Shown in pieces: positions 1-5,297 of a stretch of DNA of 5,297 nucleotides (position 1 is its first letter; each line of letters opens with the position of its first letter). Made by a program: the position numbers and the translations under genes. Where the stretch lies: positions 1 to 5,297 of the forward strand of contig JAGLYT010000118.1 of the NCBI GenBank assembly GCA_023132075.1, written 5' to 3'. The notes beneath the pieces are model-generated. The model ran no database searches. It was not told the DNA's origin and saw only the letters and a list, made by a program, of their open reading frames with translations. This DNA is from JAGLHV01 sp023132075 [NCBI: bacterium] (lineage in GTDB: Bacteria > CBDUZB01 > JAGLHV01).

Positions 1-90
1 GCAAAGCGAGTTTTCCATTTTTAGCACAGAAATATCTGTTGTCTTTTCTTTTAACTGTCTTTACTACTTATAACTGTAGTTTCTATCTAT

Positions 91-118
91 GGACTATTGA
101 CTATAGACTATGGACTAT
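91..118. repeat. Four tandem heptamers, consensus NGACTAT
   Basis: Four consecutive 7-base units read GGACTAT, TGACTAT, AGACTAT and GGACTAT on the plus strand, differing only in the first base. The array ends one base before the comF stop codon (minus strand, 120-122). Short tandem heptamers in intergenic DNA are known from cyanobacteria and other genomes; whether this one is dispersed in its own genome cannot be seen here. No function is claimed. Confidence 0.8.
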
Positions 119-119
119 T

Positions 120-833
120 TTACCCATGTGCCAACACCAAACAAAATATTCCTTGCGGGTGACATTGATCAAGCACACGCGCACATTCATTTAAAGTGGC
201 TGTTGTAGTACAAACATCATCTATTAGAAGCAGCCAACGGCCTTTAAATAACTGTGGATTCATTACTTTAAAAGCATTTTCAACATTTTCTTTTCTTTGC
301 TTTCTATTTAAATTAAATTGAGGAGAAGTCTTTTTTATTCTAATCAGATTATCGACAATTTGCGGCTTAGAAAAATGTTTGCCAATTTTTTTAGTCAACA
401 AATCAACCTGATTAAATCCTCTTCTTTTTTTCTGGGATTTAAACAAAGGAACAGGAACTAAACAATCAATTTTTTCTAGATCCACTTTTTCATTTATATA
501 AGTAACTAATAGCTTTCCTAATGGTTGTTGTAAAATTCTTTTCCCTTTATATTTAAAAGAATGGATGCATTTTCTCATAGTTCCTTCATATAAGGAACAA
601 ACATATATCCTTTCAAAATAGTATTTTATATTACGGCATTGACTACACAAAAACCCGGCTTCTTCATTTTTACCGCACTTATGGCAATACGGTTCTTTCC
701 TATATTTAATTTTTTCCAAACACTCCTGACAAAGCCCTCCCTCATTAATTAAATCCTTCCCGCATCCCACACAACTTACAGGGAAAAAAAGATTTAAACA
801 ATAATTTGATATTTCCTTTAATTTCCCCTTCAT
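120..833 (-). CDS. comF: ComF family protein (double zinc ribbon plus phosphoribosyltransferase-like domain)
   Basis: This encodes a 237-residue cytoplasmic protein of the ComF family, which in naturally competent bacteria is needed for uptake or processing of incoming single-stranded DNA. The N-terminus holds four CxxC pairs (C21/C24, C35/C38, C50/C53, C63/C66), enough for two zinc sites. A type I phosphoribosyltransferase fold follows: the family motif VPVP..KRRGFNQ is at about 126-142, RKENVENAF at 180-188, and the PRPP-binding loop LLIDDVCTTTAT at 202-213. The usual loop is DDVxTTGAT, so T211 stands where glycine is normal. Length is typical of the family. An in-frame ATG lies 11 codons upstream (864-866), but the start at 831-833 is preferred because it overlaps the lptE stop in an ATGA arrangement, implying translational coupling, and because family members begin near this point. 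Competence in this organism is an inference from the family only; no other competence gene is visible. Confidence 0.9.
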   Translation of the reverse strand: MKGKLKEISNYCLNLFFPVSCVGCGKDLINEGGLCQECLEKIKYRKEPYCHKCGKNEEAGFLCSQCRNIKYYFERIYVCSLYEGTMRKCIHSFKYKGKRILQQPLGKLLVTYINEKVDLEKIDCLVPVPLFKSQKKRRGFNQVDLLTKKIGKHFSKPQIVDNLIRIKKTSPQFNLNRKQRKENVENAFKVMNPQLFKGRWLLLIDDVCTTTATLNECARVLDQCHPQGIFCLVLAHG

Positions 834-1369
834 CTTTTCTCGCTTATTCCTGAAGCGGCAAACCATCCGTCTATTGTCCTTTTAACTATATCCTTAGCTA
901 ATGATTTTACAATTATATCCTGAGCTTCGCTTTCCGTAAGAGAAATACCTCCCCCCCAAGCAACAACAAAATACTCTGTCTCCGCAGTCATTCTTTTTTC
1001 CACCCAGAGCATTTTATTCGTAGCCGCATCTTTAAGTCCTATATTTACCCAAACCCATAATTTGTATTCCTGAGCAATATAATTTTCATCAAAAGAAAGA
1101 GGCTGTAAAATATATTTACTAATTTCCCCTAATAACACTGCATCCGCTGAATCATGGTTAACCACTCCTACTCTTCTATCCTGTAAAAATTCTTTAACTA
1201 CTTCATCAGTCAACTTTCTGCTTATTAGTGAATGTCCCGTTTTATCTATAAATTGCCGGACACTAATTTTTCTAATGTTTTCCGGCAAAACAGAAGGAGC
1301 AGGTGCATAACCACATCCAAAAACAACGATAATTAACACAACTGAAAAATATAAATAATATTTTTTCAT
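830..1369 (-). CDS. lptE: LptE-like LPS-assembly lipoprotein
   Basis: This encodes a 179-residue predicted outer-membrane lipoprotein. In the LptE family the protein plugs the LptD barrel and helps deliver lipopolysaccharide to the outer leaflet. The sequence shows a lysine-rich start, a hydrophobic segment (about residues 6-17) and a lipobox V-F-G-C with the acylated cysteine at C19, followed by the GY typical of LptE. The body matches the broad LptE pattern: LPENIRKISVRQFIDKT (28-44), LTDEVVKEFLQDRRVGVV (53-70), ADAVLLGEISKY..PLSFD (75-94), EYKLWVWVNIGLKD (101-114), LWVEKRM (121-127) and a C-terminal helix SLAKDIVKRTIDGW (156-169). An ATG 20 codons upstream (1427-1429) is in frame, but the start at 1367-1369 has a near-perfect Shine-Dalgarno and begins directly with the signal peptide. 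The gene overlaps comF by four bases. The LptD partner is not in the window. The family is diverse, so the assignment rests on pattern rather than alignment. Confidence 0.85.
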   Translation of the reverse strand: MKKYYLYFSVVLIIVVFGCGYAPAPSVLPENIRKISVRQFIDKTGHSLISRKLTDEVVKEFLQDRRVGVVNHDSADAVLLGEISKYILQPLSFDENYIAQEYKLWVWVNIGLKDAATNKMLWVEKRMTAETEYFVVAWGGGISLTESEAQDIIVKSLAKDIVKRTIDGWFAASGISEKR

Positions 1370-1608: not shown

Positions 1609-4600
1609 CTAAAAAATAATCGACAAATCGGCTGACAGACTTATACTCCAATAATCATCTTCTTTTTGCTTTCTGTTTTTAAAAGAACTTCCTCCCACCC
1701 CCAGGGTAATTTTTAAATTCTCACTGGTGTCATAGGTACAATCAACATCTACGGAATAAGTATCCGTATTATCCCTTTTATCTTCTATACCGCTTTTTCT
1801 TTCGTGTTTAATGAGAGAATCCACCACTAAACGATTTCTCAAATGCAATCCAATCAAAGGAATTATAAAATCCTTTGCAGTAATATCTACATAAATTTTC
1901 AAACTGGAAGACCGGGTTGTTATCTCCTTGGTCTTTGTTCCTACTTCATTTGTTTCTTCTTCGTCCGTATATTCATAGCGCGGACTAAGACGCCACTTAT
2001 CTAAAAGGACACTTACCTGTACACCTGTTTTCCGACTAAATCCGTCCTTGGTTGTTTCATCAACATTCTTAAGAATATTTATAGTTTTATTACGCCTATC
2101 ATCATAATCAAGAACCACATCATATCTGGTAAAAAGATCAAACCGTAAATCCCCACCATATGTTTTACTAATATCTCTGGAAACATCCTTTGTTTCTATT
2201 GTTTTATGAGAATAATTAATAGCAAGTCGGGAATCACAAATAATTTTACTATCCAGACTAAAAAACTTTTCTATATCCCCGATATTCATAGTTAAATCCG
2301 GCCAAATCTTAGTAAAAATTCTCAACCCACTATTGGTAATTTCCTTATAATCGTCAATTTCGGTATAATTGGTCGTGGTCTCCATAGTCTTTAAAGGACT
2401 AAAAGCATTATTCAAATCCAGTGAACTAAACGGCCTCCAACGATTGTTAGTTTTACGGGTACATCGATTAGAAAAACTTTTGGTTGTTGCACCGGGAAAA
2501 CTTAATTTATCCTTTTTTCGCAACAGCCATAATCCTTCCCATCTACTCCACCTGTTTCTTGCTTCTTTTTTATCTTTTTCCTCTAATCCCTGTTCTTCCA
2601 CATCATAGGAGTCGCCTGTTTCTACCTTATAGCTAGTATCCGTAGTTAAAGAATGAAGAGGGGTTACCCCCGGAAAAAGATTTTTAAACGTTAAAGAATA
2701 ATTTAACTGTCCATCACTATTACGGCTTATTGTTTCTATTTCGCCTGTACGGAAATCATACGACCCCGAAGAGTTTATTTTATAATTAAACGATGGAGCC
2801 AACCAGGTAAAAACTTTTAGATTAGAATCAAAACTGACTGTTTGAGCACGGTATTTATCCTTAAAATATTTATTCTTAAAATCTGTATTAGCAGGCCCAT
2901 CATTCTCCTCTTCTTTGGCTTTGATTACTTCCAAATAATAATAAGGATTAAAAGAAAAACCTTTCCAAAACTTAAAAGGTAACCTTGCGGAAAAATTTTC
3001 AGTCAGATCCCGATAATTATTAGGAGCAATCACAGTAAAGGTTGTTTCTTCAACTACATAATTTTGACGTCTATAGGAAACATCTATTGCTGTCGGCAAT
3101 AAATTTACTCCCCATTCTTCAGGCGTATAAGAGGAATATTTCAAAGGAATATTATAATCTAACGAACCCTTTCGAGTGAAAGTATCCTTTCTTTCCCAAA
3201 GAAGTTTGGAGTTGGAGTGGTCTTCAGCATAATTAATTTTTAAAGTAGGCCAGCGCGGCACCAATAATTCCGCACCACCTTCTCCGGAGAAACTTTCAAC
3301 CTTCCCTTCATCAAAGCTACTATAAGGTGTATCATAGGCTGAAGGGGTCACTGTTTCCTGGTGACTACCGCTAAAAGAAAGAGGTAAAAACTTAAAACGG
3401 GTAAACTCAAGTCCGGCAGATTCCGATTTAATTTCCTGCCCGGAAGTAAGGCTTCGAGTACTAATTAAATCCTGTTGAGAACTACCGGTTGTAATCGTTT
3501 CAAAATCAGCATCTATGTTTTTATGGTTAGCATGAGCATTAAACCATCCCGGTAATTTAAAATCCACAGCTGATTTCCATGCTATACCTTCTTTTTTTTC
3601 TATTCCGTCTACAAATATATCATTCACCCAGATCTCCCCATCGGTAATCTTACCTCCCGTGTTATTCCTTACTCCTATTTTTATCTGCATAATATTGTTC
3701 AAGTAAGGACTACCCTGATATCCGGTAAATCCGTCGGGAATCTCATTTTTGTCTTCATCTTTATTTAAATGAATAGTACAAACCTTCCAGCCTGTCCAAT
3801 TTATTGTTTCGGCATATTCATAATAATTAGTATCATTTGCCCCAAGCTGAATATAAAAAGTCGCATTTTTTGCTTTACTTCCATACAGAAAAAATTTTAT
3901 TTTTTTATATTTTGAATAATCCTGTACCCGGCTAAAAGTTGTTTTTGTATAAGCGGCTGTACTCGCATTTAAAGTATAACTCAAAGAAAGTGCCTGCTCC
4001 TTTCTTTTTTCGGTTACCGAAGAACGATAAAGATTTTCATATTCACTATTATTGGTTATATCTTCGTATTCTGCATCATCTTCATTATTTACGGCTTTTA
4101 CGGTTAAATATTCCCCATCTATTGACTCAAAAGAACCTCCTTCCTTTACACCTTTATCCCATTTTGTTCCCACTATCCCAATAGAACTAATTTTCATTGT
4201 TCCACTTTTTACTCCTGCATCTTTATTCCTTACAGTTAATCTTATGTGTTTAATTGCTGCCCATTGATTCTCATCTACAATGTCAAGAGGGATTTTTATC
4301 AGATTCCATCCTGTCCAGTCAATAATTTGACTATAGAAATTACCGGAACTATTCTTATCATCTAACACATTATCCCCATCTAAATCCTGGGTATCTATCT
4401 TTCCGTTATTCTCCCCAATAAAAGTAACGCTTCCGTCCGGATGAACAAATGGCCATCCGATGTCCTCTCCTTCACCTAAAATACCGTCGCCATTAATGTC
4501 TTCTGTCTTGGGCGCCCCCCCTATAACCCCGGATCCGTCAGAATTTTCATTAATCCCGCCCAAATGAATTTCCAATTCTTCCCCTTCACTTGTTCCATAA

Positions 4601-5297
4601 ATACACATTTCCAAAAACATTTTTTTAGAATAATCTACCCCAACTTGAGAAATTGGGTAGACAATAGAAGCTTCTTCATCAAAACTTTTCAGGTTATAGT
4701 TAAGATTGATAACCTCAACCTCTTCAGACTCTCCCACTTCCTCCAGCCAATTAGGATTGGTTTTTTCTACTATTTCCCTACGCTTGACATCTTCATTCTC
4801 CCAGTTAAGTGCCCCCTTTAAAGTAACTGCTTCCTCAACAGGATTACTGCTTAACTGCCAAAAATCCTTCTCCAGAGGAACACTGCTCATCAATTTTGCC
4901 CCTTCCATATTATCAATCATTGCCTTACCGAATAAATTAGGATTAAATTGACTCTGAGCAATTTCACCGGATATAGTCGTCTTTAACGGAAATTTTTCAT
5001 GCTCAATCTTAACCCTGCTGTCAACATCTACTACTAAAACACTTTGAGGGGTAGAATAAACACTGGGAACAGTAGAAGATTTATCGGTTCCGCTCCAGAT
5101 AACAGTAGACCCGATAAAAAAAGGATCGGTATTTTCCCCATACTGCAATCTGCTTCCCACTAAAGTTTGCTGCGATTGACCTCCAAAAGGAGCATATTCA
5201 TAAGTAATCTCAATATTAGTATCCTCATCTATTTCTTCTTCATTAAAAAAAGTTATAAACCCTGACTCATAATCAATCATATAATCTCTGTCTTTTT
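1609..5297 (-). CDS. sprA: SprA-like giant outer-membrane protein, 5' end outside window
   Basis: This is the C-terminal part (at least 1228 residues) of a protein resembling SprA, the very large beta-barrel that forms the type IX secretion translocon in Bacteroidota. The frame stays open to the window edge, and KDRDYMIDYESGFITFF spans the first visible ATG, the pattern seen inside SprA N-domains, so that ATG (5278-5280) is not the start. Numbering from it as residue 1: SprA-like signature TLVGSRLQY (39-47) and FGKAMIDNMEGAKL (117-130); a beta-sandwich-like module (about 217-377); a second copy (about 455-566); then alternating polar/hydrophobic strands from about 570 to the end. The C-terminus WSISLSADLSIIF ends in phenylalanine, as BAM-assembled barrels do. 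Bacteroidota SprA is about twice this length, so a comparable upstream half may be missing. The role as a protein-export channel is inferred from family resemblance; no other type IX component is in view. A different giant outer-membrane barrel remains possible. Confidence 0.75.
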   Translation of the reverse strand, partial: KDRDYMIDYESGFITFFNEEEIDEDTNIEITYEYAPFGGQSQQTLVGSRLQYGENTDPFFIGSTVIWSGTDKSSTVPSVYSTPQSVLVVDVDSRVKIEHEKFPLKTTISGEIAQSQFNPNLFGKAMIDNMEGAKLMSSVPLEKDFWQLSSNPVEEAVTLKGALNWENEDVKRREIVEKTNPNWLEEVGESEEVEVINLNYNLKSFDEEASIVYPISQVGVDYSKKMFLEMCIYGTSEGEELEIHLGGINENSDGSGVIGGAPKTEDINGDGILGEGEDIGWPFVHPDGSVTFIGENNGKIDTQDLDGDNVLDDKNSSGNFYSQIIDWTGWNLIKIPLDIVDENQWAAIKHIRLTVRNKDAGVKSGTMKISSIGIVGTKWDKGVKEGGSFESIDGEYLTVKAVNNEDDAEYEDITNNSEYENLYRSSVTEKRKEQALSLSYTLNASTAAYTKTTFSRVQDYSKYKKIKFFLYGSKAKNATFYIQLGANDTNYYEYAETINWTGWKVCTIHLNKDEDKNEIPDGFTGYQGSPYLNNIMQIKIGVRNNTGGKITDGEIWVNDIFVDGIEKKEGIAWKSAVDFKLPGWFNAHANHKNIDADFETITTGSSQQDLISTRSLTSGQEIKSESAGLEFTRFKFLPLSFSGSHQETVTPSAYDTPYSSFDEGKVESFSGEGGAELLVPRWPTLKINYAEDHSNSKLLWERKDTFTRKGSLDYNIPLKYSSYTPEEWGVNLLPTAIDVSYRRQNYVVEETTFTVIAPNNYRDLTENFSARLPFKFWKGFSFNPYYYLEVIKAKEEENDGPANTDFKNKYFKDKYRAQTVSFDSNLKVFTWLAPSFNYKINSSGSYDFRTGEIETISRNSDGQLNYSLTFKNLFPGVTPLHSLTTDTSYKVETGDSYDVEEQGLEEKDKKEARNRWSRWEGLWLLRKKDKLSFPGATTKSFSNRCTRKTNNRWRPFSSLDLNNAFSPLKTMETTTNYTEIDDYKEITNSGLRIFTKIWPDLTMNIGDIEKFFSLDSKIICDSRLAINYSHKTIETKDVSRDISKTYGGDLRFDLFTRYDVVLDYDDRRNKTINILKNVDETTKDGFSRKTGVQVSVLLDKWRLSPRYEYTDEEETNEVGTKTKEITTRSSSLKIYVDITAKDFIIPLIGLHLRNRLVVDSLIKHERKSGIEDKRDNTDTYSVDVDCTYDTSENLKITLGVGGSSFKNRKQKEDDYWSISLSADLSIIF
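3583..3918 (-). other. Module B of the internal duplication in the sprA-like gene
   Basis: Residues about 455-566 (counting from the ATG at 5280) repeat the upstream module. Shared landmarks are YSK....F.LYG followed by a strand ending in I.LG, the phrase INWTGWKV (IDWTGWNL in module A), and IKIGVRN (IRLTVRN in A). The module contains a shorter calcium-loop-like stretch, DEDKNEIPD (508-516), just after the tryptophan motif. The WTGW phrase and the strand pattern suggest a jelly-roll fold like carbohydrate-binding modules, but this is inference from appearance. Confidence 0.65.
4150..4632 (-). other. Module A of the internal duplication, interrupted by an acidic insert
   Basis: Residues about 217-377 have the same landmarks as module B: YSKKMFLEMCIYG, then EIHLG, then IDWTGWNLIKIPL and IRLTVRN. 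Between the EIHLG strand and the WTGW strand it has about 70 extra residues (roughly 242-314), where module B has only about 11. The insert is rich in Gly, Asp and Asn and carries two calcium-loop motifs. The repeat in a SprA-type protein would lie in the extracellular part. Confidence 0.65.
4351..4500 (-). other. Two EF-hand/dockerin-like calcium loops in the sprA-like protein
   Basis: Loop 1 (residues 261-272, bases 4465-4500) reads DINGDGILGEGE. It fits the 12-residue EF-hand loop exactly: D, N and D at positions 1, 3 and 5, G at 6, a hydrophobic residue at 8 and E at 12. Loop 2 (299-310, bases 4351-4386) reads DLDGDNVLDDKN, with D at 1, 3 and 5 but N rather than E at position 12. Such loops are common in secreted and surface proteins, where calcium stabilises the fold. 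No flanking helices are evident, so they are isolated loops and not a full EF-hand domain. Confidence 0.7.

What the first reader, a model, noticed from the sequence alone, without database searches (positions are those of the whole stretch)
1609..5297. SprA-type translocon-like protein, possibly outside the usual Bacteroidota setting
The visible part carries the SprA-like pairing of YxxDYESGxIxF, TLVGxxLxY and GKAxIDxxEG motifs followed by a long barrel region ending in F. SprA is the type IX secretion channel. In an AT-rich genome with this neighbourhood (lptE and comF), it may belong to a poorly studied lineage with a variant of the system, or a SprA relative used for something else.
Basis: partly seen in the sequence, partly recalled or inferred. 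Interest (0 to 1): 0.6.

Follow-up and report, generated by a model that had tools for sequence, protein, structure and literature searches.

The report
Divergent protein-export channel with paired carriers
An uncultured bacterium carries a shortened version of the giant export channel SprA, plus many exported proteins encoded right beside their own membrane carriers, but no recognisable motor or sortase of the known system.

Summary
The 1228-aa frame at 1609-5295 (-) is the C-terminal 70% of a SprA homologue cut by the contig end; intact same-genus copies are 1748 and 1731 aa. A family profile finds only SprA in the PDB, E 5.7e-38; Foldseek puts SprA first, E 8e-25 and 4e-25. It misses the NCBIfam SprA cut-off, so it is a divergent, short SprA. 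The genome has 22 type IX sorting-domain matches and 24 PorV-family matches. The surprise is gene order: in six genomes 44 of 95 sorting-domain matches are followed within 1 kb, same strand, by a PorV-family match, about 0.5 expected. Of 11 carriers examined, 8 have a TPR or OmpA tail. GldM was not found, GldL only at chance level, the C25 sortase only weakly in one sister genome. Best reading: a type IX variant in which many cargoes leave through SprA on their own carrier-anchor, powered by something unrecognised. SprA itself is not rare: 153 of 386 sampled genomes match, 2 of them with GldM.

The parts
1609..5295 (-). sprA-like gene, C-terminal 1228 of about 1748 codons; cut by the contig end at 5297
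   Evidence: open frame, TIGR04189 E 2.9e-25, family profile matches only SprA in the PDB, residue 1 here is residue 521 of the intact same-genus copy
   Evidence: pattern positions
830..1369 (-). lptE-like gene (start taken by analogy with the same-genus copies), directly after sprA
   Evidence: PF04390 34.1 bits over cut-off 23; same order in L021
120..833 (-). comF-like gene (start taken by analogy with the same-genus copies)

Best explanation
The gene encodes a divergent, shortened SprA: the outer-membrane channel of a type IX-like secretion system. Cargo proteins reach the periplasm by the Sec pathway, enter the SprA barrel, and their C-terminal sorting domain binds a small PorV/PorQ-family barrel docked at the side of SprA. 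In this lineage many cargoes have their own carrier, encoded immediately downstream. After leaving SprA the cargo most likely stays bound, uncleaved, to that carrier, which serves as its surface anchor; carriers with C-terminal TPR or OmpA tails would tie it to periplasmic partners or the cell wall. No GldM and no convincing GldL was found, and the C25 sortase was not found in two of the three genus genomes, so energy input and any processing must come from unrecognised parts. Shown by sequence: SprA homology, sorting domains, carriers, gene pairing, tails, missing profile matches. Inferred: transport, docking, retention, lack of a motor.
For: SprA homology. Gene intact in two genus relatives; pN/pS 0.17 between the window and its nearest relative, from 28 differences only. 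Sorting-domain matches (TIGR04183): 22, 14 and 23 in the three genus genomes. Across 60 genomes sorting domains occur in 19 of 22 with a TIGR04189 SprA match and 4 of 38 without (Fisher 5e-9, not corrected for kinship). Pairing: 44 of 95 in six genomes, 32 of 59 in the genus; within 1.5 kb none on the opposite strand and 1 on the 5' side. Carriers: 7 of 10 scanned pass the PorV_fam cut-off; 8 of 11 examined have a TPR or OmpA tail. Cargo tails match the C-terminal end of the PorZ model in 5 of 10 and of the PorU model in 5 of 10, always below those models' whole-protein cut-offs; tails of PorU and PorZ are not removed on secretion in P. gingivalis (PMC11285876, passage). Mechanism by analogy: PMC10994853 and PMC12635249 (passages) for CTD, carrier and SprA; PMC12618676 (abstract and passages) and PMC9143113 (passages) for downstream-encoded SprF/PorP carriers and PorE-PorP-cargo complexes.
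Against: The SprA equivalog cut-off is not reached (150.5 and 159.9 of 200 bits for the intact copies). Both AlphaFold half-models are poor (mean pLDDT 49 and 54; TM 0.23-0.24 to SprA), so barrel size and strand number are not established. 27 of 59 sorting-domain matches in the genus have no detected carrier within 1 kb downstream. Carriers are not confined to SprA genomes: 8 of 18 SprA_N-negative genomes searched also match the PorV family, 3 of them over its cut-off. Sorting-domain matches are weak (20-43 bits in the window genome; 3 of 22 below cut-off), and many cargo tails also match flagellar FlgD-type models, so some may be generic. G020 and G029 have pairs without a detected SprA; G058 has SprA but no sorting-domain match. 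GldL and GldM are missing only to sequence profiles; GldK, GldN, SprE, SprT and Plug were not searched.
Confidence: 0.72

Rival explanations
1. A canonical type IX system with motor and sortase, too diverged or too incompletely assembled for the profiles to see.
For: The window genome is 86.7% complete in 389 contigs. G001 has one weak C25 match (37 bits). G002 has one chance-level GldL match (13.7 bits, E 0.05). The Gld profiles were recalled, not shown, to be built on Bacteroidota.
Against: No GldM match at E <= 0.1 in 22 genomes, three of them this genus at 87-97% completeness. GldL: no match over cut-off in 19 genomes, best E 0.0029, no better than matches in 5 of 14 unrelated control genomes. 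The GldM profile works where it should: 264-394 bits in three genomes. No C25 match in G000 or G002, while 12 of the 15 SprA_N-positive genomes outside the genus have one.
Confidence: 0.3
2. A SprA-like barrel used for something else, for instance lipopolysaccharide or lipid export, given lptE and lptF/G genes beside it.
For: lptE directly follows sprA in the genus, and an lptF/G-type gene lies divergently upstream of sprA in 8 of 17 loci with enough flank.
Against: Sorting domains accompany SprA across genomes. Two of the lptF/G-linked loci are in genomes with strong SprA matches and 82 and 150 sorting-domain matches (G003, G047).
Confidence: 0.08
3. The contig is misbinned from another genome.
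For: Short MAG contig with three genes.
Against: Same gene order with 99% and 71% identical SprA in two other genomes of the genus; GC 35.7% against 35.2% in 20 other contigs of the genome; the sequence falls far from the SprAs of the two GldM-positive genomes.
Confidence: 0.02

Closest known systems
SprA / Sov, type IX translocon of Flavobacterium johnsoniae and Porphyromonas gingivalis
   Same: Collinear profile match over positions 63-565 and 793-1110 of the family profile to residues 76-777 and 1158-1571 of F. johnsoniae SprA; best Foldseek match of both half-models
   Different: About 1740 aa instead of 2403; below the SprA equivalog cut-off; one weak SprA_N match; sits in a clade of short proteins with records labelled Elusimicrobia, Elusimicrobiota and Sumerlaeota and with G058
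Type B cargo with downstream PorP/SprF carrier in Bacteroidota (PMC12618676, PMC9143113; passages)
   Same: Carrier gene directly downstream of the cargo gene; carrier is a small outer-membrane barrel; a partner with TPR and OmpA-like domains (PorE) in some cases
   Different: In NCBIfam the PorV/PorQ family is the best carrier family for 10 of 10 carriers scanned, PorP/SprF listed for one; in Pfam PorP_SprF passes its cut-off in 2 of 8 carriers, PorV in 1. 6 of 10 cargo tails pass the type A cut-off, one (L092) is nearer the type B model, one (L083) scores higher with CHU_C. TPR or OmpA parts are fused to the carrier
PorU-PorV-PorQ-PorZ attachment complex of P. gingivalis
   Same: PorQ scores above PorV for 6 of the 7 carriers with both listed; cargo tails match the ends of the PorZ and PorU models
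   Different: Many paralogous pairs instead of one complex; neither the PorQ nor the PorV equivalog cut-off is met; no C25 sortase found in G000 or G002

Membership tests
SprA/Sov (NCBIfam TIGR04189 equivalog) | Whole-protein score over the curated cut-off of 200 bits | tested here: not met
   87.8 (window fragment), 150.5 and 159.9 (intact same-genus proteins)
SprA/Sov (homologous family in the wide sense) | Significant, collinear similarity to SprA of known structure | tested here: met
   E 5.7e-38, two collinear stretches, no other PDB sequence up to E 10; Foldseek ranks 1-3 and 1-4
SprA/Sov | Two SprA_N (PF14349) copies | tested here: inconclusive
   One listed match in each genus genome, rising from 25.5 to 31.2 bits with neighbours in the frame for the window; none listed by hmmscan
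SprA/Sov | 36-strand barrel with lateral opening | tested here: inconclusive
   Half-models with mean pLDDT 49 and 54; fold match to SprA but no reliable strand count
Type IX secretion system | Cargo with C-terminal sorting domains | tested here: met
   22 TIGR04183 matches in the window genome, 19 of them over cut-off; 14 and 23 in its relatives
Type IX secretion system | PorV-family carrier | tested here: met
   24, 24 and 31 NF033709 matches, some being pieces of one gene or below cut-off
Type IX secretion system | GldL/GldM (PorL/PorM) motor | tested here: not met
   No GldM match; GldL only one chance-level match in the genus; absence by sequence profile only
Type IX secretion system | PorU C25 sortase (type A branch) | tested here: not met
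   0 in G000 and G002, one 37-bit match in G001
Type IX secretion system | GldK/GldN ring, SprE, SprT, Plug | not tested
Type IX secretion system | SprA-dependent export of cargo | not testable with these tools
   needs experiment

The most novel reading that the evidence does not exclude
In many lineages the type IX pathway runs without the GldLM rotary motor, and in lineages such as this one it is organised as many cargo-carrier pairs in which a PorQ/PorV-type barrel, often with a fused TPR or OmpA tail, is both exit shuttle and permanent surface anchor. This would be a motor-less, sortase-less branch, possibly close to the ancestral form of the system.
Probability: 0.45. Interest if true: 0.78.

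Novelty: new variant of a known kind. Interest (0 to 1): 0.6.

Why it matters
The passages read describe the type IX system as powered by the GldLM proton motor (PMC10994853) and as absent beyond Bacteroidetes and possibly some FCB phyla (PMC11285876; PMC4793230 found it in Bacteroidetes only). If real, something else pulls the carrier-cargo complex out of SprA, or no motor is needed when cargo and carrier come as dedicated pairs. The pairs also give a list of testable binding partners.

Tried and rejected
Window alone: PDB sequence search with the single fragment found nothing; the family profile was needed. tRNA and Rfam searches of the window were empty. Pfam Lyase_N (16.8 bits, cut-off 26) and DUF2460 matches are below cut-off and were rejected. 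Structure: AlphaFold on both halves gave low confidence; the fold match to SprA is used only as support and no strand number is claimed. In the VIA-align list unrelated CBM-like and barrel chains score Z 9.5-13.4 and interleave with SprA at 13.2-14.6, so that list alone does not single out SprA. Naming the lineage: the public records of the two same-genus relatives are labelled 'Clostridia bacterium' and 'bacterium'; a paper search for their accession prefixes found nothing; I do not name a phylum.

Literature: ten searches gave no paper that, in the listings seen, describes PorV/PorQ-type cargo-carrier pairs or a type IX system without GldLM; this does not prove that none exists. PMC8542988 and PMC6851124 were checked by passage: in the first the terms occur only in its reference list, the second proposes type IX signals in Fibrobacter.

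The listings of the first PorV and sorting-domain searches were truncated, so six genomes were searched again. The three genomes added to the genus (G020, G029, G031) were chosen because I had already seen adjacent pairs in them, so 44 of 95 is not a random sample; the genus alone gives 32 of 59. The carriers and cargo proteins scanned are picks from contigs of the window genome, not all of its matches. In one search one Fisher table had one genome too many; corrected. L103 and L104 were fetched and not used.
Full report
What is in the window. On the minus strand lie the 3' part of a large gene (1609-5295, 1228 codons, open at the contig end), an lptE-like gene and a comF-like gene. Two genomes of the same genus hold the intact gene in the same order: 1748 aa (99% identical to the window) and 1731 aa (71%). 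The window starts at residue 521. Both intact proteins begin with a stretch that looks like a signal peptide by eye.

Is it SprA? Homology is clear. NCBIfam TIGR04189 matches with E 2.9e-25 (fragment), 3.6e-44 and 5.3e-47 (intact), below the equivalog cut-off of 200 bits. A profile of seven sequences (window included) finds in the PDB only the F. johnsoniae SprA sequences, E 5.7e-38, in two collinear stretches. AlphaFold models of the two halves are poor (mean pLDDT 49 and 54), yet Foldseek ranks SprA first for each (E 8e-25 and 4e-25; next unrelated chain 2e-5 and 7e-7). A FastTree tree of 26 SprA rows puts the window genus in a clade (support 1.00) of short proteins with records labelled Elusimicrobia, Elusimicrobiota and Sumerlaeota and with G058, away from the two SprAs of genomes that have GldM. 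So it is a divergent SprA, not an SprA equivalog by the curated rule.

Is there a type IX system around it? Sorting-domain matches (TIGR04183, E up to 0.001) number 22, 14 and 23 in the three genus genomes. PorV-family matches (NF033709) number 24, 24 and 31, counting pieces and matches below cut-off. Among 60 genomes (the window's included), 17 of 18 with a SprA_N match and 6 of 42 without have sorting domains; with the longer SprA profile it is 19 of 22 against 4 of 38 (Fisher 5e-9 without correction for kinship). The PorV family is less specific: it matches in 18 of 18 SprA_N-positive genomes and also in 8 of 18 SprA_N-negative genomes searched, 3 of those over cut-off. The C25 sortase is not found in G000 and G002 and is weak in G001, though 12 of the 15 SprA_N-positive genomes outside the genus have it (and 3 of 18 SprA_N-negative ones). 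GldM is not found at E 0.1 in any of 22 genomes; GldL gives chance-level matches in 5 of 19 (one of them G002) and in 5 of 14 control genomes. In 386 genomes, 153 match SprA (90 over cut-off) and 3 match GldM over its cut-off, 2 of which also match SprA. GldK, GldN, SprE, SprT and Plug were not searched.

The gene pairs. In six genomes 44 of 95 sorting-domain matches are followed within 1 kb on the same strand by a PorV-family match; within 1.5 kb there are none on the opposite strand and one on the 5' side (the 5' side is partly filled by the cargo gene itself). About 0.46 would be expected by even scatter. In the genus it is 10 of 22, 10 of 14 and 12 of 23. Reading the contigs added two further pairs in the window genome: L084 (genes overlap by four bases; tail not listed by TIGR04183) and L089 (one base between the genes; tail 19.7 bits, cut-off 23). 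L089 also has an OmpA-type gene after the carrier, seen by eye, and L081 a carrier followed by three cargo genes. Cargo includes a subtilase (L083) and a beta-helix protein (L079). Of 18 cargo proteins read, 15 end in lysine.

What the carriers are. Of 10 carriers scanned, 7 pass the PorV_fam cut-off (92-204 bits) and 3 do not (50-70 bits). PorQ scores above PorV in 6 of the 7 with both listed (for example 162.7 against 71.0) and below in one; neither equivalog cut-off is met; one (L095) also matches PorP/SprF. Of 11 carriers examined together, 7 have TPR-family matches behind the barrel, 1 has an OmpA domain, 3 have neither. Of 10 cargo proteins scanned, 6 pass the TIGR04183 cut-off, 3 fall below it and 1 is not listed; 5 match the end of the PorZ model and 5 the end of the PorU model, one (L092) is nearer the type B model (32.7 bits, cut-off 35), and FlgD-type matches also occur.

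How it most likely works. In F. johnsoniae the cargo CTD binds the extracellular loops of PorV inside SprA, and energy from GldLM is thought to remove the PorV-cargo complex through the side of the barrel (PMC10994853, passages). Type B cargo has its own SprF-like carrier, commonly encoded directly downstream, and stays bound to it (PMC12635249, PMC12618676, passages); in P. gingivalis PorE, with TPR and OmpA-like domains, is proposed to join such a carrier to the cell wall (PMC9143113, passages). The tails of PorU and PorZ are not removed on secretion (PMC11285876, passage). The genome here fits the same logic with PorQ/PorV-type carriers and with PorE-like parts fused to the carrier. Retention of the tail, docking on SprA and lack of a motor are inference.

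What is not new. SprA-like proteins are widespread in this sample. Dedicated downstream carriers are known for type B cargo. New here, as far as ten searches of the open library show, is the extent of pairing with PorQ/PorV-type carriers, the fused tails, and the missing motor and sortase.

Synteny. An lptF/G-type gene stands divergently upstream of sprA in 8 of 17 loci with enough 5' flank (4 of 21 loci had less than 250 bases). In seven of the eight the gap is 145-1007 bases, with one gene in between in L027; in L041 the called frames overlap by 697 bases, so its starts are uncertain. comF follows sprA in two further loci (L027, L043).

Noticed in passing
L022, L027, L028, L030, L033, L036, L041, L043: An lptF/lptG-type permease gene is divergent from sprA in 8 of 17 loci with enough flank. 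Shared control of LPS export and the SprA channel is a possible reason.
   Followed up: partly
L081:565-8790: A PorV-TPR carrier followed by three consecutive sorting-domain cargo genes: one carrier may serve several cargoes.
   Followed up: no
G064 (genome handle): GldM match of 362 bits but no SprA match.
   Followed up: no
G058 / L043: SprA of the same short clade, with comF and lptF/G genes beside it, but no sorting-domain match and only two PorV-family matches, best E 2.4e-12.
   Followed up: no
G020, G029: Sorting-domain genes followed by PorV-family genes although no SprA was detected.
   Followed up: no
window 87-119: Two CTATGGACTATT units near the contig end; similar GACTATGGACTA units recur in L089 and L092 of the same genome.
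   Followed up: partly
L096, L098: Two PorV-like fragments with, by eye, nearly identical ends and a charged tail at contig edges, suggesting a recent duplication in the window genome.
   Followed up: no
L079, L082, L095: Genes that look by eye like histidine kinases or response regulators sit near the cargo-carrier pairs.
   Followed up: no
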